Below, one piece after another: positions 8,629-18,194 of a stretch of DNA of 64,000 nucleotides; the stretch's first letter is position 1, and each line of letters starts with the position of its first letter. Position numbers and translations under genes: made by a program. The DNA is from Alphaproteobacteria bacterium (GTDB lineage: Bacteria; Pseudomonadota; Alphaproteobacteria; ATCC43930; CGMCC-115725). The stretch lies in the NCBI GenBank assembly GCA_028871055.1, contig JAGWON010000002.1:62001-126000 (forward strand), in the 5' to 3' direction. The notes beneath the pieces were generated by a model. That model ran no database searches and had not been told where the DNA came from. It saw nothing but the letters and a program-made list of their open reading frames with translations.

Positions 8629-9388
8629 GCACCGCCTGCGGCGCCTTGACGTCGCCGGGCGCGCCTTCGTTGAGGAGGCCGAGCCGGCGCGCCACCTCCT
8701 GATAGGCTTCCTCGACCTTGCCCATGTCGCGGCGGAAGCGGTCCTTGTCGAGCTTCTCGTTGGTCTTCAGGTCCCACAGCCGGCAATTGTCCGGGCTGAT
8801 CTCGTCGGCCAGCACGATGCGCATCTCGTCGCCCTCGTAGAGCCGGCCGAACTCGAGCTTGAAGTCGACGACGCGAATGCCGATGCCGAGGAACAGACCG
8901 GTGAGGAAATCGTTGACGCGCAGCGACAACTGAATGATGTCGTCGAGGTCCTGGGTCGACGCCCAGCCGAAGGCGGTGATGTGCTCCTCCGACACCATCG
9001 GATCGCCGAGCTCGTCCTTCTTGTAGTAGTACTCGACGATCGAGCGCGGCAGCGCCGTGCCTTCCTCGAGGCCGAAGCGCTTGGCGAGCGAGCCGGCGAC
9101 GACGTTCCGGATGACGACTTCAACCGGTATGATCTGCACCTGCTTGACCAGCTGCTCGCGCATGTTGAGCCGGCGCACGAAATGCGTCGGAATGCCGATC
9201 TCGGCTAGGCGCAGCATCAGGTACTCGCTGATGCGGTTGTTGAGCACGCCCTTGCCGGTGATCGTGCCTTTCTTCTGGTTGTTGAAGGCGGTGGCGTCGT
9301 CCTTGAAATACTGCACCAGGGTGCCGGGCTCGGGGCCCTCGAACAGCACCTTGGCCTTGCCTTCGTAGATCTGCTTGCGTCGGGTCAT
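8624..9388 (-). CDS. purC: SAICAR synthetase
   Basis: 254 residues from the ATG at 9388 ([20 protein letters not shown]). Contains the signatures [27 protein letters not shown] and VDFKLEFGR...[14 protein letters not shown], which bind ATP, aspartate and CAIR. It catalyses the ATP-dependent joining of CAIR and aspartate in purine synthesis. It is the first gene of the minus-strand purC-purS-(hemD-like)-purQ-purL-bolA-grxD series. The end of the gene touches the MITE-like element. Confidence 0.97.
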
Positions 9389-9491
9389 GACCAGCCTCGG
9401 CGAGGAAAAAGTAAGCGAGACCTTATATAGCAAGCGCAGCCCGCAACGCCAACGCTGCTGCGCCGCCACAGCCCGAGTCGCGCACAGCTTT

Positions 9492-9914
9492 TCAGGCCAA
9501 ATCGTCGCGTCCGGCCAAGGTCTTGCGCGATCCGGCGGCGCGCACCGCGCGCAGCGTGGCGGCGACGCGGCTCTCGACGCCGAGCTTGCGGTAGATGCGG
9601 CCGATCGTATGGCTGACGGTCTTGGGCGAAATGCCTAGGATACGCCCGATCTCGGCGTCGGTCTTGCCAAAGGCGAGCCAGGCCAGGATTTCCGCCTGGC
9701 GCCGCGTCAGGTCCAACGCCATCAAGTCTTCGGCCCGCAACGGTTTCTGTCCGCCGGGCGTCCGCCGTTTTGCCACGCTTCTCGACTCCGCGTTCAAGCG
9801 CTGACCGGTCCCGCGGTCGGTGATCCGCGTGCCGGGATCGCGGCGGATTATTCGCACGGCGCCGCCGGCCACCAATGGGCAGAATTGCCTATCCGTCTGC
9901 GTGGGCGTCCTCAT
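9492..9914 (-). CDS. HTH-only LuxR-type protein (truncated paralogue of the upstream regulator)
   Basis: 140 residues if started at the ATG at 9914, which overlaps the TGA of the upstream LuxR gene (ATGA). Residues about 60-127 are a LuxR/FixJ DNA-binding domain ([20 protein letters not shown] ... [18 protein letters not shown]) almost identical to that of the neighbour. The first 55 residues are not protein-like. Their DNA (9872-9892) resembles the promoter-region palindrome of the neighbour (11062-11081), so this looks like a duplicate of the promoter plus HTH with the sensor domain deleted. Translation may really begin at MALDLTRRQ, giving a bare DNA-binding domain. A plausible role is as a competitor or modulator of the full-length regulator. 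Confidence 0.7.
9872..9892. promoter_or_regulatory. Second copy of the LuxR-associated palindrome
   Basis: CCAATGGGCAGAATTGCCTA matches 11062-11081 closely, around the core GGGCAGnnnTGCCTAT. It lies inside the predicted 5' part of the HTH-only paralogue, which is what a duplicated operator converted to coding sequence would look like. Confidence 0.45.
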
Positions 9915-10990
9915 GCCGACCCGGCCGCGCGCAGGGCGCGGGCGGCGGCGGCGACGCGGCTCTCGACGCCGAGCTTGCGGTAGATGCGCCCGAGCGTGTG
10001 GCTCACCGTGCGCGGCGAGATGTCGAGAATGGACGCGATCTCGCCGTCGGTCTTGCCGAGGGCGAGCCAGGCGAGAATCTCGGCCTCGCGCCGCGTCAGG
10101 CCGAGCGAAGCCAGGTCCTTGGGCCGCAAGGCGGTGCGGCGCTCTTCCATCACGATGAGCCGCCGGCCGCGATCGTCGAGCAGATGGGCGACGAGGCGCC
10201 GGCTGCCGCGCTCGACGACGAAGGGCCGGCACAGCGTCGGCGGCGTGTCGGCCGCGGCGGCAGGCAGCTCGCCCTGCGCCACCCAGCGCGCCAGCAGATC
10301 GGGCAAGTACGCGTCCGTCGCGCGCGCACCGAAATAATCGACGAGCCACTGTCGCGCACGCGCGGTGGCGATCAGGACGCGGCCGTCGGGCGCGAGCACG
10401 ATGGCGCCGCCGCGCAGCGCGTCGATGCCCCGATGGAGCAGCGCCAGATCGCGGCCGTGGTCGGCATGGGCGGCGGCGATCTCGTAGGCATGCAGCAGAT
10501 GCGGGCGGATGAGATCGAACACGGCGCGGTCGCGCGCGCCGTAATCCTTGCCGCTGCGCACCGCGACGAACGCAACGGTTAGCTCCGCTGGGCTCGGAAT
10601 CTTCGCGCCGATCACGTGCTCGACGCCCATCGGGCGATAGAACTCCGTATACATGCCGCGGCGGCGCCATTCGCAGTCGCTGATGAAGTCGGCGATGGTC
10701 ACGGTCGCGTTCGCGTCGGGCCGCACGAAATAATCGAGGAACGGGTGCTCGCGAATGTGCGCCTCGAAGATGCGCGTGCCGTCCCGTATCGGCGGCACGC
10801 CGCCATAAACCCAGCGGACGCGGCCGCGCGGGATATTGACTTCGTTATAGGCGGCGCATTCGCTCGACGTCAGCGTCAGCAACTCGCGCGCGACGAAGGC
10901 GGCGAAGCCGTCGAGGTCGCGCGCCGCATAAGCGCCGGCGATGAAATCCAGCGCCGCGCGCAAGTCGCGCTTGGTGAGCCCGTCGCCCAT
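9911..10990 (-). CDS. LuxR-family transcriptional regulator
   Basis: 359 residues: an N-terminal region of about 290 residues without a recognised sensor fold and a C-terminal HTH_LuxR domain from about residue 298 ([20 protein letters not shown] ... [18 protein letters not shown]). A good GAGGGGGG ribosome-binding site precedes the ATG. It has no phosphoacceptor receiver domain, so it is not a classical response regulator. It is divergent from the exported-protein gene at 11194, with a GGCAG-N2-CTGCC palindrome between them, which suggests autoregulation and control of the exported cluster. Confidence 0.85.
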   Translation of the reverse strand: MGDGLTKRDLRAALDFIAGAYAARDLDGFAAFVARELLTLTSSECAAYNEVNIPRGRVRWVYGGVPPIRDGTRIFEAHIREHPFLDYFVRPDANATVTIADFISDCEWRRRGMYTEFYRPMGVEHVIGAKIPSPAELTVAFVAVRSGKDYGARDRAVFDLIRPHLLHAYEIAAAHADHGRDLALLHRGIDALRGGAIVLAPDGRVLIATARARQWLVDYFGARATDAYLPDLLARWVAQGELPAAAADTPPTLCRPFVVERGSRRLVAHLLDDRGRRLIVMEERRTALRPKDLASLGLTRREAEILAWLALGKTDGEIASILDISPRTVSHTLGRIYRKLGVESRVAAAARALRAAGSA

Positions 10991-11061
10991 CGCCGGCCCC
11001 CCTCAGGCCACGCGCCATCGACCGAACCCAAGCAAAACGAACGGTAGAACGAGCTAACCAA

Positions 11062-11081
11062 CCATGGGCAGTTCTGCCTAT
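11062..11081. promoter_or_regulatory. Candidate operator between the LuxR gene and the exported-protein cluster
   Basis: CCATGGGCAGTTCTGCCTAT contains the inverted repeat GGCAG-N2-CTGCC. It lies in the 203-bp divergent intergenic region, about 72 bp from the LuxR start and 113 bp from the lipoprotein start, and is repeated at 9872-9892. The binding protein is inferred to be the adjacent LuxR regulator. Confidence 0.5.
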
Positions 11082-11193
11082 TGGCGGTTTCGGCCACGCC
11101 CCACACAATGGCCGAAGACTAGAGAATATGCGCGCGCGCCGCCTGTCAATGGCTGCTGCGGACAGGGCGCGGATCGCGCCGAGGGGAAAAGCC

Positions 11194-11628
11194 ATGGCAT
11201 CGCATCGCGATACCCGGCGCGGCTTGTGCCTCGTCGCCGCGCTGGTCCTGCCGATCCTGCTTGCCGCGTGCGGCGGCGGTCCGCCGCCGCCGATGGTGCT
11301 GAATAGCGACGCGCCGCCGTCGCCGCCGTATACGGGCGTCGACGCTTGCGGCCACCGGCTTCAGATGCCGATGGTCGCGCACGGCACATTCGGCGGTCCG
11401 AGCGCGCCCGGCGGTGGAACCGCCGCTGAGGGCACGATCGTCACGGACGACAAAGGCAACAACTGGGGAGTCACCGGCTCGGGTACCTTGATCGGGCCGG
11501 CGGAGCGCATGCCTGACGGCAACTGGAAGGTTACGCCGCAGTCCGGTGCCACGCCGTCCATGGATTTCCCCTGTCCGCCGCCGTCGACGCGACCGATGGC
11601 GCCGACGCCGTCGGGGTCTCAAGGGTGA
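11194..11628 (+). CDS. Exported lipoprotein with PCPPP...PSGSQG tail
   Basis: 144 residues from ATG 11194 (GAGGGGA just upstream). A signal peptide with lipobox LAAC (Cys26) predicts membrane anchoring. The mature part has a Cys52-started domain (MVAHGTFGG ... DDKGNNWGV ... GNWKVTPQSGA) that aligns well with the product of 16011-16427, followed by PCPPP (126-130) and the terminal PTPSGSQG. No known family is recognised. It is the first gene of a plus-strand run of exported proteins, divergent from the LuxR pair. Confidence 0.8.
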   Translation: MASHRDTRRGLCLVAALVLPILLAACGGGPPPPMVLNSDAPPSPPYTGVDACGHRLQMPMVAHGTFGGPSAPGGGTAAEGTIVTDDKGNNWGVTGSGTLIGPAERMPDGNWKVTPQSGATPSMDFPCPPPSTRPMAPTPSGSQG

Positions 11629-11657
11629 GGTGACTTCCACCGCGTAAACGCGAAATC

Positions 11658-11666
11658 GGGGGGGGG
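11658..11666 (+). promoter_or_regulatory. Nine-G tract at the ribosome-binding position
   Basis: A run of nine G residues stands where the Shine-Dalgarno of the next gene (ATG 11672) should be, with a spacing of five bases. It may serve as the ribosome-binding site. Homopolymer slippage could change its strength. Confidence 0.4.
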
Positions 11667-11671
11667 CGACA

Positions 11672-12853
11672 ATGCGCATGAACTGGATCGTGGCGCCGCT
11701 GGTCGCGGCGAGTATGGGTTTGGCGATCGGCTCGTCGATGCCTGGGGCAAAGGCCCAGCCAGCCGGTGGTGGCGGCGTCGCGCCGGTCGGCACCACGACG
11801 CCGGCGATTGCGCCGCCGACGGCGCCGATTCAGGACACATCGGCACCGCCCACGACGCCGCCCGTCAACGACCCGATCGTCCAGACCGATCTGACGATCG
11901 GCAAGCCGCCCAACACGCAGGACATCACCATCGTCGAGCACAAATGCAAGAATCCCAAGACCGGAAAGGACGTCGCCAGCTATCTCGGCTTCGACCAGAC
12001 GACGGGCGCGATGGTGGGCGAGTTCACCAAGCGGCCGCCGAGCGATCCCAAGTCGGCGTTCAGTCCGTGGAAGGGACCGACCCCCGTCGCTGGACCGTGT
12101 CCGCCCAAGACGCTGGTGATGGTGATTCCCAAGAAGCCGCCGGCGACGACGGGCGGCGTCAAGATCAGGCCGAACTGGATGTTCAGCGGCGGCCTCGGCG
12201 GCACCGTCCTCGTTCCCAACGTCAAGTTCGACTATCTCGGCACCGGCGTCGGCCCCGGCGCGTCCCAGACGCTCAGCCCGGCCCGCGTCATGCCGACGCT
12301 CGAGTTCGATGCCCGGCATCCGATCGGCAACGGCATGGCAATCGGCGCCTCGGGCAACTTCATGCTGCCGATCAGCGGCGCCAGCACCAAGAACGTGACG
12401 GCGAACGTTCCCGGCACGCTCAGCTACACGCAAGGGCTCGCGGCCAATGCGTTCGTCAACTGGCTCTATGAGTTCTGCGATTGGGCGGCAGCGAGTGAGG
12501 AGGACTATTACGACTGCCTCGACTGGGCCGATTACCAGGCGCCGATCCGCGTCCGGTTCATCCTTGGCGCCGGATTCGCGCTCGACCAATGGAAGGCAAG
12601 CGAGGTCTTCCCCGGCAACGGCGACAATTTCAGCACCGGCTGGCAGACCAACATCGAGCCGTCGTTCCAGGCCGGTGTGTCGCTGAAGAGCCCCTATCTC
12701 GGCGGCGGTTGGACGCAGCTGCTGGTCACCGACACGTTGGGCGGCGGCACCAAGACCATGCCGGGCGGCAACGCCGCGTCGTTCGGCACCGCCAAGTTCG
12801 GCAACAACGTCGGCGTGACGCTCAAATACGTGCTGCCGTTCGGCGATCCGTGA
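11672..12853 (+). CDS. Probable outer-membrane beta-barrel protein with N-terminal CPP domain
   Basis: 393 residues: signal peptide (cleavage near AKAQ), a Pro/Thr-rich linker to about residue 75, a short Cys domain (HKCKNPKTGKDVASYLGFDQ ... GPCPPKT) resembling the small exported proteins nearby, then about 240 residues of alternating Gly/aromatic beta segments. The C-terminus (VGVTLKYVLPF) is typical of OmpA/OmpW-like barrels, although two further residues (GDP... end) follow the Phe. The fold is inferred from pattern only. It may anchor or export the neighbouring PSGSQG proteins. Confidence 0.65.
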   Translation: MRMNWIVAPLVAASMGLAIGSSMPGAKAQPAGGGGVAPVGTTTPAIAPPTAPIQDTSAPPTTPPVNDPIVQTDLTIGKPPNTQDITIVEHKCKNPKTGKDVASYLGFDQTTGAMVGEFTKRPPSDPKSAFSPWKGPTPVAGPCPPKTLVMVIPKKPPATTGGVKIRPNWMFSGGLGGTVLVPNVKFDYLGTGVGPGASQTLSPARVMPTLEFDARHPIGNGMAIGASGNFMLPISGASTKNVTANVPGTLSYTQGLAANAFVNWLYEFCDWAAASEEDYYDCLDWADYQAPIRVRFILGAGFALDQWKASEVFPGNGDNFSTGWQTNIEPSFQAGVSLKSPYLGGGWTQLLVTDTLGGGTKTMPGGNAASFGTAKFGNNVGVTLKYVLPFGDP

Positions 12854-12906
12854 ACGCGGTTGGTGGGACATTTTGATAGCGGCGTCGGCCGCAGGAGGGC
12901 TTCACG

Positions 12907-13908
12907 ATGAGACGCTTGGTTTTTGCACTTCTCGCCCTGGTTGCTTTTGTCAGCGTCGCGCACGCGGCCGACGTGCCCGGCAGCAAGGACCCGCCGTTCC
13001 TGAAGCGGTTCAAGGGATCCGAGATCGTCGTCTATGTGACTCGAAGCTTCGACCAGTACACGGTCTTGGTCGATAACGACCTGAAGAAGAAAACCGTCGA
13101 AGGCGCGGTAACGCGGATCATGTATCGCGTGCCGCTCGGTCATACCGCATTCGAGCTGCTGCGCAACTATGAACAGGCGTTCAAGGAAGCTGGGTTCGCT
13201 ATCACCGGCGAGATCGCGCCGTGCAAAACCGAATATGGGATCGTTGGGACGGAAGACTTCGTCTACGGTCAGGTGCAGACGCCGCTCGATACCAATCCTT
13301 ATAGCAACGGCTCGAGCACCAATCACGGGCCCGACGGGCCGATGTGCTATTTCTCGGCGCACGGCACCGCCGACGGCAAGGACATCACCGCGAGCGTGAT
13401 CGCGATCGAGAAGCATGCGAACCCGGCCTTCAAGGCGCCCGGCGCTCCTCCCGTCGTCATGAAAGTGGGCGAAATTCTGGTCGGCGTTGATATCGTCGCC
13501 GCCAAGGCGGTCGAGAATCAAATGGTCGTGGTCAAGGCGGCCGACATGGCCGACGCGCTGGCGACCAAGGGCAAGGTCGACCTCTACGGCGTCTACTTCG
13601 ATACCGACAAGGCGATCGTCAAGCCGGAGAGCAAGCCGACGCTCGACGAGGTCGCGAACCTCTTGAAGATCGACCGCTCGCTCAAGCTCGAGATTGCCGG
13701 CCACACCGACAACACCGGCGACAAGGCGCACAACCAGAAGCTCTCCGAAGACCGCGCCAAGGCGGTGGTCGACGCGCTGGTCAAGCAATACGGCATCGAT
13801 CCCAAGCGGCTTCAGGCCAAAGGCTATGGCGATACCAAGCCGGTGGCGTCGAACGACACCGATGCCGGCCGCGCCAAGAATCGCCGCGTCGAGCTGCGCA
13901 AACTCTGA
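12907..13908 (+). CDS. OmpA-family protein with DUF4892-like N-terminal domain
   Basis: 333 residues: signal peptide (to AHAAD), an N-terminal domain around FLKRFKGSEIVVYVTRSFDQ similar to those joined to OmpA domains in other proteobacteria, and a C-terminal OmpA peptidoglycan-binding domain from about residue 225. The latter shows YFDTDKAIVKPES, IAGHTDNTGD, NQKLSEDRA and GRAKNRRVEL. It should tether the outer membrane to peptidoglycan. A CAGGAGGG ribosome-binding site precedes the ATG, and the gene sits 53 bases after the barrel gene, so the two probably work together. Confidence 0.85.
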   Translation: MRRLVFALLALVAFVSVAHAADVPGSKDPPFLKRFKGSEIVVYVTRSFDQYTVLVDNDLKKKTVEGAVTRIMYRVPLGHTAFELLRNYEQAFKEAGFAITGEIAPCKTEYGIVGTEDFVYGQVQTPLDTNPYSNGSSTNHGPDGPMCYFSAHGTADGKDITASVIAIEKHANPAFKAPGAPPVVMKVGEILVGVDIVAAKAVENQMVVVKAADMADALATKGKVDLYGVYFDTDKAIVKPESKPTLDEVANLLKIDRSLKLEIAGHTDNTGDKAHNQKLSEDRAKAVVDALVKQYGIDPKRLQAKGYGDTKPVASNDTDAGRAKNRRVELRKL

Positions 13909-13940
13909 CGCGCAACGATCAGCCGGGGGAGGGTGACAAA

Positions 13941-14858
13941 ATGAGTGCACGGCTCACGATGGCGCGGCTGGCGGCGGGGACCGTCATCGCCGCGTCGCTG
14001 CTCGGCGCCGGCGGCGCGCGGGCCGCCGATCTCTACAACAACACCAACGGCTATGCGGTGACGAACGGGCCGCGGGCGGCGAACGTGTTCACGCTGCGCG
14101 CACCGGCGCAGATCACCCAGCTCATCACCTATCACTGGAACGGCGGCCGCGGCGCGCCGGCCGGCACGATTGCGCTGCGCGATAGGAATGGTCGCACCTA
14201 CGGTCCGTTCCGCGCGCATGCCACGTCGGGCCAGAACAACGCGCCCAACGTCAACTGGATCGCCGATATCAATATTCGGCTTCCGGCGGGCACATACCAG
14301 GTGATCGATTCCAATTCCGCCACGTGGTCGCAGAACGCGCAATCGGGCTATCGCGGCTTCGCCATCGTGCGCGGCACGCTGCTTGCCGCGGCGCCGCAAC
14401 CCGCTCCGAATTTTGGCAATGCGCCGCGGCCACCGGCGCCAAGTCCCGCGCCGGCGCCGCAGCCGGCGGCCGGTTTGCCGCTGCCCAGCCCATGCCATGG
14501 CAATTCGGCGAGCTTTCTCGAGCTCGCCAAGCCGGTCTGCTCCGGCCCGCCCGGCACCACGATCACGCTCTATGTCAGTCGCAACGGGCTGAAGGTTCGG
14601 CCGACCGCGGCGCAGTTCAAACGCGGACCGATCGGCCAAATGCTGTTCGGCAATACGATGCTGCCCTACGGGCCGATGCTGTTGCAGGAGCCGCTCGCGC
14701 TCGCGGCGGGGAACGGCTTGCAGCCGGGCAGCCGCTACACGACGACGATACCGCCGGGCGCCTGCGCCACGGGCCGCAATCACATCTGGTACTTCGACGT
14801 CTATGCCGTCGTTGGCGGCCGGCCGGAGGATATCGACGTGGTCGGGGTCCGTTGCTGA
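13941..14858 (+). CDS. Exported protein with Pro/Ala linker, function unknown
   Basis: 305 residues: signal peptide ending ARAAD, a first domain of about 130 residues (ITYHWNGGRGAPAGTIALRD ... GTYQVIDSN) that looks like a beta-sandwich, a Pro/Ala-rich linker (about 150-180), and a second domain with paired Cys (PCHGN, PVCSG, ACATG, GVRC). The gene has a GGGGGAGGG ribosome-binding site and follows the OmpA gene by 32 bases. No family is recognised. Co-transcription with the exported cluster is likely. Confidence 0.7.
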   Translation: MSARLTMARLAAGTVIAASLLGAGGARAADLYNNTNGYAVTNGPRAANVFTLRAPAQITQLITYHWNGGRGAPAGTIALRDRNGRTYGPFRAHATSGQNNAPNVNWIADINIRLPAGTYQVIDSNSATWSQNAQSGYRGFAIVRGTLLAAAPQPAPNFGNAPRPPAPSPAPAPQPAAGLPLPSPCHGNSASFLELAKPVCSGPPGTTITLYVSRNGLKVRPTAAQFKRGPIGQMLFGNTMLPYGPMLLQEPLALAAGNGLQPGSRYTTTIPPGACATGRNHIWYFDVYAVVGGRPEDIDVVGVRC

Positions 14859-14921
14859 GCGCCGCGCTTCGGCATCACCAGCTGCTGGTGAGGCCAACCC
14901 ACTGCGGATATTGGAGGGATT

Positions 14922-15287
14922 ATGAAGACCTATGCGTACGCACTCTTTGCCGTCGCCGCGCTTGGACTGACAGGCGGCCAAACCGCGCACGCCCAAGTCA
15001 TGGTTTCAGGCGCCGACTGCTTTACGGCGCACATGGTGGGCGGCGACAAGCAGGTGACCTGGATCGACGTCAAGACGCAAAAGCCGGCCGTTCCGCCCGA
15101 AGGCGACTATCAAGCCACCGGACGCGGCATGCCAGCATCGCTGAGCGTCTCGCAAGGCGCACGCGACATCCCGGATTTCACGCATCTATACAATCCCGAG
15201 ACGGGTCAGGAGTATGAGCTGATCGCCTGTCCGCCGAAGGGCACGCAGCAGCCGATGCAATATCAGACGCCGGGATCTAACGGCTAG
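14922..15287 (+). CDS. Small exported protein, CPP-motif family member
   Basis: 121 residues: signal peptide (ALGLTGGQTAHA), then a mature protein with WIDVKTQKP near residue 47 and YNPETGQEYELIACPP near the end, closing QTPGSNG. The W-I-D-x-x-T and NPxTG...CPP patterns recur in the neighbours at 15364 and 16746 and in the N-terminal domain of the barrel protein, so this is a divergent member of the same group. A GGAGGG ribosome-binding site lies six bases before the ATG. Confidence 0.7.
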   Translation: MKTYAYALFAVAALGLTGGQTAHAQVMVSGADCFTAHMVGGDKQVTWIDVKTQKPAVPPEGDYQATGRGMPASLSVSQGARDIPDFTHLYNPETGQEYELIACPPKGTQQPMQYQTPGSNG

Positions 15288-15363
15288 GTGCCGCATCGGC
15301 CGCTTTGGCGTCACCGGCTGCCGGTGACGCGCGCGGCGCATGCATGGATCGGAGCAGACGACG

Positions 15364-15834
15364 ATGATTAAGGTTTCTCTCTCCCCGTTGAATAGGGTCG
15401 CAGCCTGCGCGATCGCCGTGTCGATCGCGGCATTCGGCGTCGGCCGGTTCTCGGACGCGCACGCCCAAACCGCGGCGAGCGGCGGCGGCGATTGCTGGCA
15501 CGATACGACGACTGGACAACAAGTTCTGGTCGGACCCGTAGACACCACTAATGATGACCGATTCGACCTCCATCACGGGGCGAATGTTGTTCAGCTCAGA
15601 AACGGACACGAGGCTGAACAACGGTCAGATGGTTCCTGGATTGACATCACGACTGGACAACAAGTTCTGGTCGGACCCGTAGACATCACTGATGATGACC
15701 GATTCAACCTCCATCACGGGGCGAATGTTGTTCAGCTAACAGGTGGGCATGAGGCAGAACGCGTTCCATGTCCGCCGCCGGCGGCGCCGACGCTTCCGGT
15801 GCAGCCGATGGCGCCGAGCGGCTCGCAAGGCTGA
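15364..15834 (+). CDS. Exported two-repeat protein with PSGSQG tail
   Basis: 156 residues from ATG 15364; an in-frame ATG at 15340 is less likely because the signal peptide begins here (to DAHAQ). The mature protein has two tandem 47-residue units, each with TTGQQVLVGPVD, a DDRF segment and HHGANVVQL, then RVPCPPP and the tail PTLPVQPMAPSGSQG. The tail is identical over PTLPVQPMAPSG to the protein at 16746. Codon choice in the repeats (CCC/GGA/ACA/CAT) is less GC-biased than in the flanks. Function unknown; repeats of this kind often bind ligands or surfaces. Confidence 0.75.
   Translation: MIKVSLSPLNRVAACAIAVSIAAFGVGRFSDAHAQTAASGGGDCWHDTTTGQQVLVGPVDTTNDDRFDLHHGANVVQLRNGHEAEQRSDGSWIDITTGQQVLVGPVDITDDDRFNLHHGANVVQLTGGHEAERVPCPPPAAPTLPVQPMAPSGSQG
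15508..15737 (+). repeat. Intragenic tandem repeat, 141-bp period
   Basis: 15508-15596 and 15649-15737 differ at only three of 89 positions. The high DNA identity, including third codon positions, indicates a recent duplication or ongoing homogenisation. Confidence 0.9.
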
Positions 15835-16010
15835 TCGATGGGCGACGATGCGCGTCCGCTCGCTGGCGCGCCCTAAGACCGCGAGGTCGCGTCCCGGCAC
15901 GGGGCCAGACCGCGTGGCCGTTTCGCCGGCTTCGCCGCGCGTGTAGAATTGAACCCGCCGGGACAGGGGAGACCGCGGGGGCGGTCGGTGAACCCGGCGA
16001 AGGGGTCATC

Positions 16011-16427
16011 ATGCTCATGCTGAACGGGATTCGACCGCGTGCGGTCGTTGTCGGCGCGGCGCTCTGTGCGTTGATCGGCGCGGCGAGCGATTCCGCCCGC
16101 GCCCAGGCGTCGGCCTCCGTCAACAACGGCTGCGGCGGTTCGCTCAGTTTGCCGGTGGTCGCGCACGGCAACTGGACTGGCGAGAATGCGCCCACCGGCG
16201 GCCCCGCCGACGAAAAGGTCGTCAAGGACTTCCAGGGCAATACCTGGGCGGTCGACAGCCACGGCAACGTCATCGGCCCGGCCACGTATTCGCCCAAGTA
16301 CGGCGGCGGGTGGAACGTCACGCCGCAGACCGGTGCCAAGCCCTGGGGCCTGTCGATGCCATGCCCGCCGCCGAAGACGATACCGTTCGTGCCGCTGATC
16401 ATGCAGCCGAGCGGATCGCAAGGCTGA
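16011..16427 (+). CDS. Exported protein with PSGSQG tail, paralogue of the 11194 lipoprotein
   Basis: 138 residues from ATG 16011 (GAAGGGG upstream). Signal peptide to SARAQ with no lipobox, then Cys41 and a domain matching the product of 11194-11628 (PVVAHGNWTG ... FQGNTWAVDSHGNVIGP ... GWNVTPQTGAKPW), then MPCPPP and QPSGSQG. The paralogue pair brackets the repeat-protein gene, pointing to local duplication. Periplasmic or secreted; function unknown. Confidence 0.75.
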   Translation: MLMLNGIRPRAVVVGAALCALIGAASDSARAQASASVNNGCGGSLSLPVVAHGNWTGENAPTGGPADEKVVKDFQGNTWAVDSHGNVIGPATYSPKYGGGWNVTPQTGAKPWGLSMPCPPPKTIPFVPLIMQPSGSQG

Positions 16428-16557
16428 CGCGGCTCGCTCGCCGATCAGGCTATCGGCGGCGCGGCGTATTTCGCCGTGTGGGTTTGTCTCGTGCGGTGGC
16501 TTGCGTTCCACAACGATCATGCTCGGACCGCGAGCGTGAATCGGTTCATCCGGGCCT

Positions 16558-16730
16558 AACAGGGTGCTGAAAAACACTCAGGAGGTCATTGCGATGAGGC
16601 CGAAGGCCGACGCGGCAATCCAGCAACGATGGATTTCCGCTGTCTTTCTGGATCGCCACGGCACCGCAGCGCTGCGCTTGCAGCGCCTCGCGATGACGGC
16701 GGAAAGATTTTTGCAGCAGCCTGCTACGTC
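16558..16730. mobile_element. MITE-like element with family 4 (GTCATTGCGA) core
   Basis: Terminal inverted repeats ACAGGGTGCTGAAAAAC and, reading inward on the other strand, GCAGGCTGCTGCAAAAAT enclose a GTCATTGCGATGAGGC...CCTCGCGATGACGG palindrome. No coding capacity is evident. It lies between two exported-protein genes, just before the ribosome-binding site of the next one. A related core is at 50990-51105. Confidence 0.55.
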
Positions 16731-16745
16731 ACCAAGGAGGGCGAC

Positions 16746-17204
16746 ATGGTGAGGGGTTTATTTTCGCGGTCGATCCGGATCGCGGCATCCGCGGCCTTCC
16801 TGGCGGTGGCGGCCTTGTTGACGAGCGGCGTCTTCGAGACCGCCCAAGCCCAAACCGCCGCTGGATGGAGCTCGGGACAAATCGCATCAGATTCCTGTTG
16901 GGTCAACGTCGCCACCGGAGTTCATCCGCGGACTGGACCACCAGGATGGGACGGCATATCAGACCACGTGTCCTATGGTGGGCGTGCGTGGGCGCAGTTG
17001 CCAGATGGCGGCTGGATCAATGTTGCTACCGGAGTTCATCCGCACACCGGACCACCAGGATGGGACGGCATATCAGACCACGTGTCCTATGGTGGGCGTG
17101 CGTGGGTGAGAGTTCCCTGTCCGCCGCCGGCGAAGCAGACGCCGCCGGCGACGGTGCCGACGCTTCCGGTCCAGCCGATGGCGCCGAGCGGACCGCAAGG
17201 CTGA
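16746..17204 (+). CDS. Exported two-repeat protein with PSGPQG tail
   Basis: 152 residues from ATG 16746 (AAGGAGGG upstream). Signal peptide to AQAQ, then two 38-residue units (NVATGVHP, TGPPGWDGISDHVSYGGRAW), followed by RVPCPPP and PTLPVQPMAPSGPQG. The repeat scaffold (W-x-N/D-x-x-TG ... GP ... GG ... DGGW) parallels that of the 15364 protein, although the sequences and unit lengths differ. It is the last member of the run. Function unknown. Confidence 0.75.
   Translation: MVRGLFSRSIRIAASAAFLAVAALLTSGVFETAQAQTAAGWSSGQIASDSCWVNVATGVHPRTGPPGWDGISDHVSYGGRAWAQLPDGGWINVATGVHPHTGPPGWDGISDHVSYGGRAWVRVPCPPPAKQTPPATVPTLPVQPMAPSGPQG
16914..17106 (+). repeat. Intragenic tandem repeat, 114-bp period
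   Basis: 16914-16992 and 17028-17106 differ at about three of 79 positions, clustered in one stretch (CGCGGACTGG versus CGCACACCGG). This is near-perfect DNA identity, as in the neighbouring repeat gene. Confidence 0.9.
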
Positions 17205-17320
17205 CGGATGAGCGGTCGGGCCGATTGCTGGTTTCAACCGCGCGCCTGCGGCGTGTCACCGAGACAACCGGTGCACGCGTTCACCGAGCGCAGAATCCGA
17301 TCAAGCAGAGGCATCCGCTC

Positions 17321-17408
17321 ATCCAGCTTTGAGTAAGGCTCGGCTGCGCCGCGCCAACTCAAAGCAACCCTCTCCCTCGCCTTCGGGGGAGATGGCAGGG
17401 TGAGGGGT
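17321..17408. repeat. Palindromic repeat, family 3 (uninterrupted copy)
   Basis: GCTTTGAGTAAGGCT and GCCAACTCAAAGCA are a 9-bp perfect inverted repeat with a short GC centre, followed by CCCTCTCCCTCGCCTTCGGG...GTGAGGGG. It marks the boundary between the exported cluster and the NRDE gene. Compare the interrupted copy at 8027-8200. Confidence 0.75.
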
Positions 17409-17438
17409 GTCAACGTTTCGATCTGGATGGATGTCGCT

Positions 17439-18194
17439 CTAGACCGCGATGTCGCGCCATGGCGCCGATTTCGGCTGCCAGGCGGCGAAGCGGAACGCAG
17501 GCTTCCGCCCGGGCCGATTGGGCCCGGGCAACGCAACGAGTGCGCTCGACACCGTGCCGAAGCCCTCGGGCGTCAGGAAGCGCATCGAATTGGCGGCGCC
17601 GTCGTTGGGATCGGGCCGGTCGTCGGCCAGCAGCGCCTCCCAGGACGACCACGCGTCGGCGGCGGGATCGGGCGGCGTCGCGCGCGCGAACAGCGGCCGA
17701 TAGCGCTTCAGGCGCGGCGTGTCGTCGTCCAGGTCGCCGGCGGCGATCATCGCCAGTCCGGGCTCGATCTCGCGTAGCTCGAGCGGCAGCGCGCCCGCCG
17801 GATCGGCGTGCTTGAGCCAGAACGCCTCACGATTGTCGGCGAGGATCAGGTTGAAGGTGCGATAGGCCTTGGGATCGAGATCGGCCAGAGCGTGCGCCGC
17901 CGCCGCCGCGTCGGCATGGTCGAGCGCCTCGAGCACCAGCTCGCCGCGCGAGCGCACGCCGGGCGCCGGACCGAGCGAGCCGAAGCGGTTAAGAATGCCG
18001 GCGAGCACGCCGTGATCGTTGATGCCGAACCACGAGCCGCCCGCCAGCTCGTCGAGCCCGGCGACCACCTCGGGCCGGTCGCGCCAGTGCCGCGCCGGCG
18101 GCTGCCACGGCCGGCCGATCATCTCGTCGCGGTTGGCGGCCACCAGCACCGGCCAGTCATGGCCCGGCCGGCGCAGGATCACGAAGGTGCACAT
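17439..18194 (-). CDS. NRDE family protein (TANGO2-like)
   Basis: 251 residues beginning MCTFVILRRPG, with the family-naming NRDE motif in VAANRDEMIGRPWQPP and GSWFGINDHGVLAGILNR. The family belongs to the N-terminal-nucleophile fold with Cys2 conserved. The biochemical role in bacteria is unsettled, and haem trafficking has been proposed for eukaryotic TANGO2. It is convergent with the exported cluster and divergent from the ATP synthase zeta-type gene. Confidence 0.9.
   Translation of the reverse strand: MCTFVILRRPGHDWPVLVAANRDEMIGRPWQPPARHWRDRPEVVAGLDELAGGSWFGINDHGVLAGILNRFGSLGPAPGVRSRGELVLEALDHADAAAAAHALADLDPKAYRTFNLILADNREAFWLKHADPAGALPLELREIEPGLAMIAAGDLDDDTPRLKRYRPLFARATPPDPAADAWSSWEALLADDRPDPNDGAANSMRFLTPEGFGTVSSALVALPGPNRPGRKPAFRFAAWQPKSAPWRDIAV

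What the first reader, a model, noticed from the sequence alone, without database searches (positions are those of the whole stretch)
10991..17204. LuxR-controlled cluster of exported proteins sharing a PCPPP...PSG(S/P)QG tail
Four proteins (11194, 15364, 16011, 16746) end with PCPPP, a Pro-rich linker and PSGSQG or PSGPQG. A fifth (14922) and the barrel protein (11672) carry related CPP domains. They are co-directional with an outer-membrane barrel, an OmpA-type tether and another exported protein, and divergent from a LuxR pair across a palindrome. The common tail with otherwise different bodies looks like a sorting, anchoring or partner-recognition signal for a surface system I cannot match to a described one.
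Basis: partly seen in the sequence, partly recalled or inferred. Interest (0 to 1): 0.8.

Follow-up and report, generated by a model that had tools for sequence, protein, structure and literature searches.

The report
Private cluster of tailed exported proteins
Two related bacterial genomes carry a private gene cluster for exported proteins that share a cysteine-started, proline-rich tail; the cluster is real and matched no described system searched here, but the tail looks more like part of duplicated protein families than a new sorting signal.

Summary
The observation largely holds. Four exported proteins (11194, 15364, 16011, 16746) end PCPPP-(Pro-rich)-PSG[S/P]QG; a DNA pattern drawn from those ends matches only these 4 sites in the 3.07-Mb genome. 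The palindrome occurs twice genome-wide, once before each LuxR-type gene here, and persists in the one of three congeners that has the cluster.

The bodies form two groups, 11194/16011 and 15364/16746 plus an unlinked paralogue. Tails of 15364, 16011 and 16746 agree almost fully at synonymous sites, and 15364/16746 past the stop codon, so copying explains part of the sharing. The OmpA N-part and 13941 were not found in that congener. The paralogue stands alone and ends PSPPGG. The tails show no membrane helix or basic end, unlike known C-terminal sorting signals.

Best reading: a lineage-private, LuxR-controlled envelope cluster of small exported proteins whose tail starts at a conserved cysteine and probably serves as flexible spacer or docking segment. 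No function is shown. Interest is moderate.

The parts
9492..9776 (-). LuxR-type HTH protein, about 94 aa from a GTG at 9776 (start inferred); no sensor domain
   Evidence: Pfam GerE 4.6e-16 in this frame; frame and sequence
9872..9891 (-). palindrome TAGGCAATTCTGCCCATTGG, before the HTH gene
   Evidence: one of 2 matches in the whole genome; 16-nt core exact
9911..10990 (-). LuxR-family regulator, 359 aa, N-terminal part without family, GerE HTH
   Evidence: GerE 9e-17
11065..11084 (+). palindrome TGGGCAGTTCTGCCTATTGG between regulator and first exported gene, probable operator
   Evidence: second of 2 genome matches; present at the same place in the sister species
11194..11628 (+). P1: probable lipoprotein (LLAAC), group A body, tail PCPPPSTRPMAPTPSGSQG
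   Evidence: orthologue in sister species
11569..11625 (+). P1 tail, from PC
11672..12853 (+). exported protein: Pro-rich stretch, Cys92...Cys143 PCPPK segment, beta-barrel-like C-terminal part
   Evidence: no family; beta-type alternation after residue 165; fold not predicted
12907..13908 (+). DUF4892-like plus OmpA domain protein, signal peptide, no lipobox
   Evidence: OmpA 4.8e-26; DUF4892 0.002, below cut-off; relative in another genus passes the DUF4892 cut-off
13941..14858 (+). exported orphan protein, 305 aa, no tail
   Evidence: found in 1 of 43 genomes of the order, its own
14922..15287 (+). exported 121-aa family member, end ACPPKGTQQPMQYQTPGSNG
   Evidence: body related to the unlinked paralogue, z 6.3
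15364..15834 (+). P2: group B body (internal repeat, spacing 141 nt), tail ...PSGSQG
15766..15831 (+). P2 tail
16011..16427 (+). P3: group A body, tail ...PSGSQG
   Evidence: z 19.8 to P1
16359..16424 (+). P3 tail
16746..17204 (+). P4: group B body (internal tandem repeat, period 114 nt), tail ...PSGPQG
17115..17201 (+). P4 tail

Best explanation
A lineage-private envelope cluster under its own LuxR-type switch. Shown: the gene order, the two rare palindromes, paralogy and narrow distribution in the genomes searched; export signals are read from the sequence. Inferred: LuxR-type protein(s) bind the palindromes and control themselves and the divergent exported genes. Also inferred: the products sit in or on the outer envelope, as a lipoprotein (P1), a barrel-like protein with a Cys...PCPPK segment, and a peptidoglycan-binding OmpA protein, with several small secreted paralogues. 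In these paralogues the 'tail' begins at the second of two conserved Cys of the body (probable disulfide), so PCPPP closes a small beta-rich module and the Pro-rich stretch to PSGxQG is a flexible C-terminal extension. It most likely serves as spacer or docking segment to a partner (barrel or matrix). It spread within the family by duplication and copying of gene 3' ends, and is not a signal cut by a processing enzyme.
For: Tail DNA pattern: 4 of 4 genome matches lie here. Palindrome: 2 of 2 genome matches lie before the two LuxR-type genes; present in congener G002, which has the cluster, absent from G001 and G003, which lack it. Two body groups by shuffled alignment. In 7 of 7 family members one Cys lies at the body start and one in the CPP motif. 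DNA-level likeness of tails. P1 against its sister-species orthologue: tail 13 of 19, rest 76 of 125 identical, so the tail is hardly more conserved than the rest. Beta strands in a low-confidence P2 model.
Against: No structure of usable confidence (mean pLDDT 56.6 and 35.2), so module, disulfide and barrel are unproven. Homology between body groups A and B is not shown (12 of 12 comparisons z 2.8 or less), so the tail shared across them remains partly unexplained. P1 keeps PSGSQG with 4 of 6 codons different, which argues for selection on the tail itself. The palindrome pattern is not perfectly specific: 1 match in G011 and 1 control match in G003 among 8 further genomes. Operator binding and co-transcription were not tested; promoter and terminator scans found fewer sites than shuffles (0 against 0.9 and 2 against 4.9).
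Confidence: 0.45

Rival explanations
1. The tail is neutral: a leftover C-terminal linker carried along by gene duplication and 3'-end conversion, with no role of its own.
For: Tails of 15364/16746 are 88% alike over 73 nt including bases past the stop codon, and the last codons of 15364/16011/16746 agree almost fully at synonymous sites. The orthologous tail ends PSGNAG in the sister species and the unlinked paralogue ends PSPPGG.
Against: P1 keeps PSGSQG with 4 of 6 codons different; terminal Gly in 7 of 7.
Confidence: 0.3
2. The tail is a dedicated sorting, anchoring or partner-recognition tag read by the barrel/OmpA assembly.
For: Shared by two unlike body groups in one cluster; confined to the cluster in its strict form; barrel and P1 adjacent also in the sister species.
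Against: No hydrophobic helix or basic end, unlike the tripartite signals described in PMC11980579 (passages seen); no NCBIfam C-terminal-signal model passes its cut-off. OmpA N-part and 13941 not found in the sister species; the unlinked paralogue has no such partners in the 3.4 kb held.
Confidence: 0.15
3. The small proteins are secreted antagonists (bacteriocin-like) rather than structural envelope proteins.
For: 15364 has a weak match to the BLB8/JUQZ-1 family (E 0.0011, 19.2 bits against a cut-off of 40), whose JUQZ-1 is called a bacteriocin in the title of PMC11747845 (listing only); small, exported, duplicated and variable.
Against: Only 1 of 7 family members matches and no stretch passes on its own; lipoprotein and OmpA neighbours fit an envelope role better (inference). 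An immunity gene was not sought.
Confidence: 0.05

Closest known systems
C-terminal sorting signals (PEP-CTERM, GlyGly-CTERM, MYXO-CTERM, LPXTG)
   Same: Short shared C-terminal motif on several exported proteins of one genome; MYXO-CTERM also has an invariant Cys (PMC11980579, passages seen)
   Different: No transmembrane helix and no basic cluster after the motif (read from sequence); soluble Pro-rich end; four strict members only; bodies in two paralogous groups
DUF4892-OmpA proteins (PF16234 plus PF00691)
   Same: The 12907 protein has an OmpA domain (4.8e-26) and a sub-threshold DUF4892 match; the only other relative of its N-part in 43 genomes of the order (G014) passes both cut-offs
   Different: That relative stands without barrel or tail genes in the 11 kb taken; the window protein's own DUF4892 match is below cut-off
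LuxR/GerE regulators with divergent target genes
   Same: GerE HTH, divergent gene cluster, palindrome between them
   Different: N-terminal part without family; a second bare HTH gene with its own palindrome; in G002 one short regulator that seems to lack the sensor part
BLB8/JUQZ-1 family (NF053514)
   Same: Weak match of 15364 (E 0.0011)
   Different: Below cut-off, 1 of 7 members

Membership tests
PEP-CTERM/GlyGly-CTERM/MYXO-CTERM/LPXTG-type sorting signal | motif followed by hydrophobic helix and basic end | tested here: not met
   Read from the tails listed (no transmembrane predictor was run); definition from passages of PMC11980579
PEP-CTERM/GlyGly-CTERM/MYXO-CTERM/LPXTG-type sorting signal | match to the curated NCBIfam models | tested here: not met
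   No such model among the hits of the 7 family members at E up to 1 (filters drop most hits above 0.1); the one anchoring-domain hit (lipo-invert, 16.1 bits in 11194) is below its cut-off of 37 and lies at residues 3-32
LuxR/GerE regulators | C-terminal GerE HTH | tested here: met
   9e-17 and 4.6e-16, above cut-off
LuxR/GerE regulators | binding of the palindrome and control of the divergent genes | not testable with these tools
   Only placement, rarity and conservation shown
DUF4892-OmpA proteins | OmpA peptidoglycan-binding domain | tested here: met
   91.4 bits against 27.2
DUF4892-OmpA proteins | DUF4892 domain above cut-off | tested here: not met
   18.1 bits against 28.8; relative in G014 46.7 bits
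Outer-membrane beta-barrel (11672) | match to a barrel family or confident barrel model | tested here: inconclusive
   No family, model pLDDT 35, but 52 amphipathic windows against 16.4 +/- 8.5 in shuffles, 1 of 500 reaching it
BLB8/JUQZ-1 family | score above curated cut-off | tested here: not met
   19.2 against 40 bits

The most novel reading that the evidence does not exclude
A private docking tag: Cys-Pro-rich linker-PSGxQG with a free C-terminal glycine is recognised by the barrel protein's own Cys...PCPPK segment or its loops, so that unlike small modules are presented on one LuxR-switched outer-membrane scaffold in a single bacterial lineage.
Probability: 0.12. Interest if true: 0.65.

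Novelty: new variant of a known kind. Interest (0 to 1): 0.36.

Why it matters
If the docking reading held, it would be a soluble C-terminal recruitment tag in a Gram-negative bacterium that does not use the helix-plus-basic-end design of known signals. In the more likely case it is an example of how envelope gene clusters under a private regulator arise, expand by duplication and come and go within one genus.

Tried and rejected
Known families for the small proteins: no Pfam or NCBIfam hit that passes a cut-off and no PHROGs hit at E 0.1. Solved-structure sequence search with 13941, 11672 and alignment A3: best E 0.34, none, and 0.8. AlphaFold models were poor; the fold search with the P2 model gave 0 matches at E 0.001 or less and was not interpreted. 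The barrel model was not searched, and 13941 was not modelled.

Plasmid and phage origin: barrel, no match in plasmids or phages; 16011, no match in plasmids; the other proteins were not tried there. Base composition inside the cluster (GC 0.62-0.70) is like the first 30 kb of the window (0.59-0.71), so recent foreign origin is not supported. Rfam: 0 matches at gathering scores for 9000-18000.

Outside family hits. In the class search (385 genomes drawn from a larger group), 4 other genomes matched at 3.0e-5 to 8.9e-4, none reaching the end of the profile (last position 114 of 131). One (G355) was opened and is a small protein without CPP; G094, G246 and G058 were not opened. That search scored at most 11 candidates per genome, so it is less sensitive. 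In one search, G034 matched at 1.4e-4 and was opened: a 364-aa protein without this tail. Rejected as relatives.

Sister species G002: it might lack genes only by contig breakage. The N-part of the OmpA protein and 13941 had no match in any held G002 contig, and contig C2 runs from the barrel end straight into TPR, 188-aa and NRDE-like genes. G002 is 85% complete with 7% contamination; joining C157 to C2 as one locus is inference.

The genome-contig scan used only two short N-terminal peptide patterns of the barrel and may leave out records of this genome, so its single locus is not proof of absence elsewhere.

Papers. PSGSQG and REEB11 returned 0 papers. Passages only of PMC11980579 and PMC7716261 were seen. 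PMC3237569, PMC3325183 and PMC11747845 were seen in listings only.
Full report
What is there. The window lies in a 3.07-Mb genome (G000, 33 contigs, 99% complete). Between a purC-like and an NRDE-type gene (names recalled from the sequence, not from a call) lie two LuxR-type genes on the minus strand and eight exported-protein genes on the plus strand. Of Pfam and NCBIfam, only the OmpA domain of 12907 and the GerE HTH of the two regulators pass a curated cut-off; PHROGs gives none for the seven other exported proteins at E 0.1.

The tail. 11194 ends PCPPPSTRPMAPTPSGSQG, 15364 PCPPPAAPTLPVQPMAPSGSQG, 16011 PCPPPKTIPFVPLIMQPSGSQG, 16746 PCPPPAKQTPPATVPTLPVQPMAPSGPQG; 14922 ends ACPPKGTQQPMQYQTPGSNG. 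A degenerate pattern for P-x-G-x-Q-G-TGA, drawn from the four tails, occurs 4 times in the whole genome, all four here, with 0 control hits. The strict tail is therefore real and specific to the locus.

The bodies. With signal peptide and tail removed, 500-shuffle alignments give two groups. Group A is 11194, its sister-species orthologue and 16011 (z 13.8 to 27.7). Group B is 15364, 16746 and an unlinked paralogue on contig C1 (z 5.3, 14.2, 16.2), with 14922 joined to that paralogue only (z 6.3; against 15364 and 16746 z 1.3 and 0.3). The 12 comparisons between the groups are z -1.0 to 2.8. The barrel's Cys segment against the seven others is z -0.3 to 2.9, and profile comparison gives 26.8% probability (E 0.00069) over a stretch that contains the CPP motif itself; the relation of the barrel segment is a lead only. 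In 7 of 7 family members one Cys opens the body and another is the C of PCPPP or ACPPK. I infer a disulfide-closed module followed by a flexible end. 15364 and 16746 each contain an internal repeat (spacing 141 and 114 nt).

How the tail came to be shared. The last 73 nt of 15364 and 16746, running past the stop codon, are 88% identical, and 15364, 16011 and 16746 end CCG AGC GG[A/C] [T/C]CG CAA GGC TGA. That is likeness at DNA level, as left by copying. 11194 differs: CCG TCG GGG TCT CAA GGG TGA encodes the same PSGSQG with 4 of 6 codons changed, so the residues outlived their codons there. Between 11194 and its sister orthologue the tail is 13 of 19 and the rest 76 of 125 identical: hardly more conserved than the rest. 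All 7 members end in Gly.

Regulation. The palindrome pattern YRGGCARNNYTGCCYRNYRG has 2 matches in the genome and 0 control matches: 11065-11084 and 9872-9891, one before each LuxR-type gene. The pattern was drawn from these sites, so the two home matches are by construction; the information is that there are no others. Among 8 further genomes it has 1 match in G002, between regulator and first exported gene, none in G001 and G003, and 1 in G011 with a different sequence that I did not open; the control pattern had 1 match, in G003.

Distribution and history. The barrel is found in 2 of 61 genomes (own and G002). The tail family matched 3 of 61, own, G002 and the rejected G034. 13941 is found in 1 of 43 genomes of the order, and the N-part of the OmpA protein in 2 of 43, own and G014; the G014 gene has no barrel or tail gene in the 11 kb taken. 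One pattern-based scan of genome contigs, with two short N-terminal barrel peptides, found only the REEB11 contig. G001 and G003 have purC about 150 and 115 nt from NRDE, with none of the cluster genes between. G001 keeps about 45 nt that match the end of the HTH gene including its stop, which hints at loss there rather than gain elsewhere; no tree was made. G002 has purC, one short regulator that seems to lack the sensor part, P1, barrel, then (next contig) barrel end, a TPR gene and a 188-aa gene before NRDE.

The unlinked paralogue (L007) lies beside a ligA-like gene (name recalled) with no barrel or OmpA gene in the 3.4 kb held, and ends PCPPPATPPPPTVPNVPMQPSPPGG.

Mechanism. I commit to a LuxR-switched envelope cluster with small exported modules bearing a Cys-started, Pro-rich spacer or docking tail (0.45). 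Steps shown: gene order, motif rarity, palindrome placement, paralogy, distribution in the genomes searched. Read from sequence: signal peptides, lipobox. Inferred: operator function, operon, disulfide, barrel, surface location, docking. Known C-terminal sorting signals need a hydrophobic helix and a basic end (PMC11980579, passages), which these tails lack, so membership in that kind is rejected. That does not exclude a tag of another design.

Structure. AlphaFold gave mean pLDDT 56.6 for 15364 and 35.2 for 11672; a fold search with the former found nothing at E 0.001. The C-terminal part of 11672 has more amphipathic 10-residue windows (52) than 499 of 500 shuffles (mean 16.4), compatible with membrane strands.

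Noticed in passing
window 16575-16705: Intergenic palindromic repeat between 16011 and 16746: 9 matches in the genome counting itself, 78-100% identical, some partial.
   Followed up: partly
L013:2595-3068 (G002): Sister-species regulator looks like a fusion of the first codons of the long LuxR gene to an HTH like the short one, the sensor part missing.
   Followed up: partly
L012:150-1395 (G002): In the sister species the same slot holds a TPR protein and a 188-aa orphan with a signal-like N-terminus instead of the OmpA-to-16746 genes, so the slot seems to turn over quickly.
   Followed up: partly
window 14863-14900 and 15295-15335: Two similar hairpin-like sequences (ATCACCAGCTGCTGGTGA and GTCACCGGCTGCCGGTGAC) in consecutive intergenic gaps of the cluster, read from the sequence.
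   Followed up: no
L020:12660-12720 (G001): About 45 nt matching the 3' end of the HTH gene remain next to purC in a species without the cluster, a possible deletion scar.
   Followed up: partly
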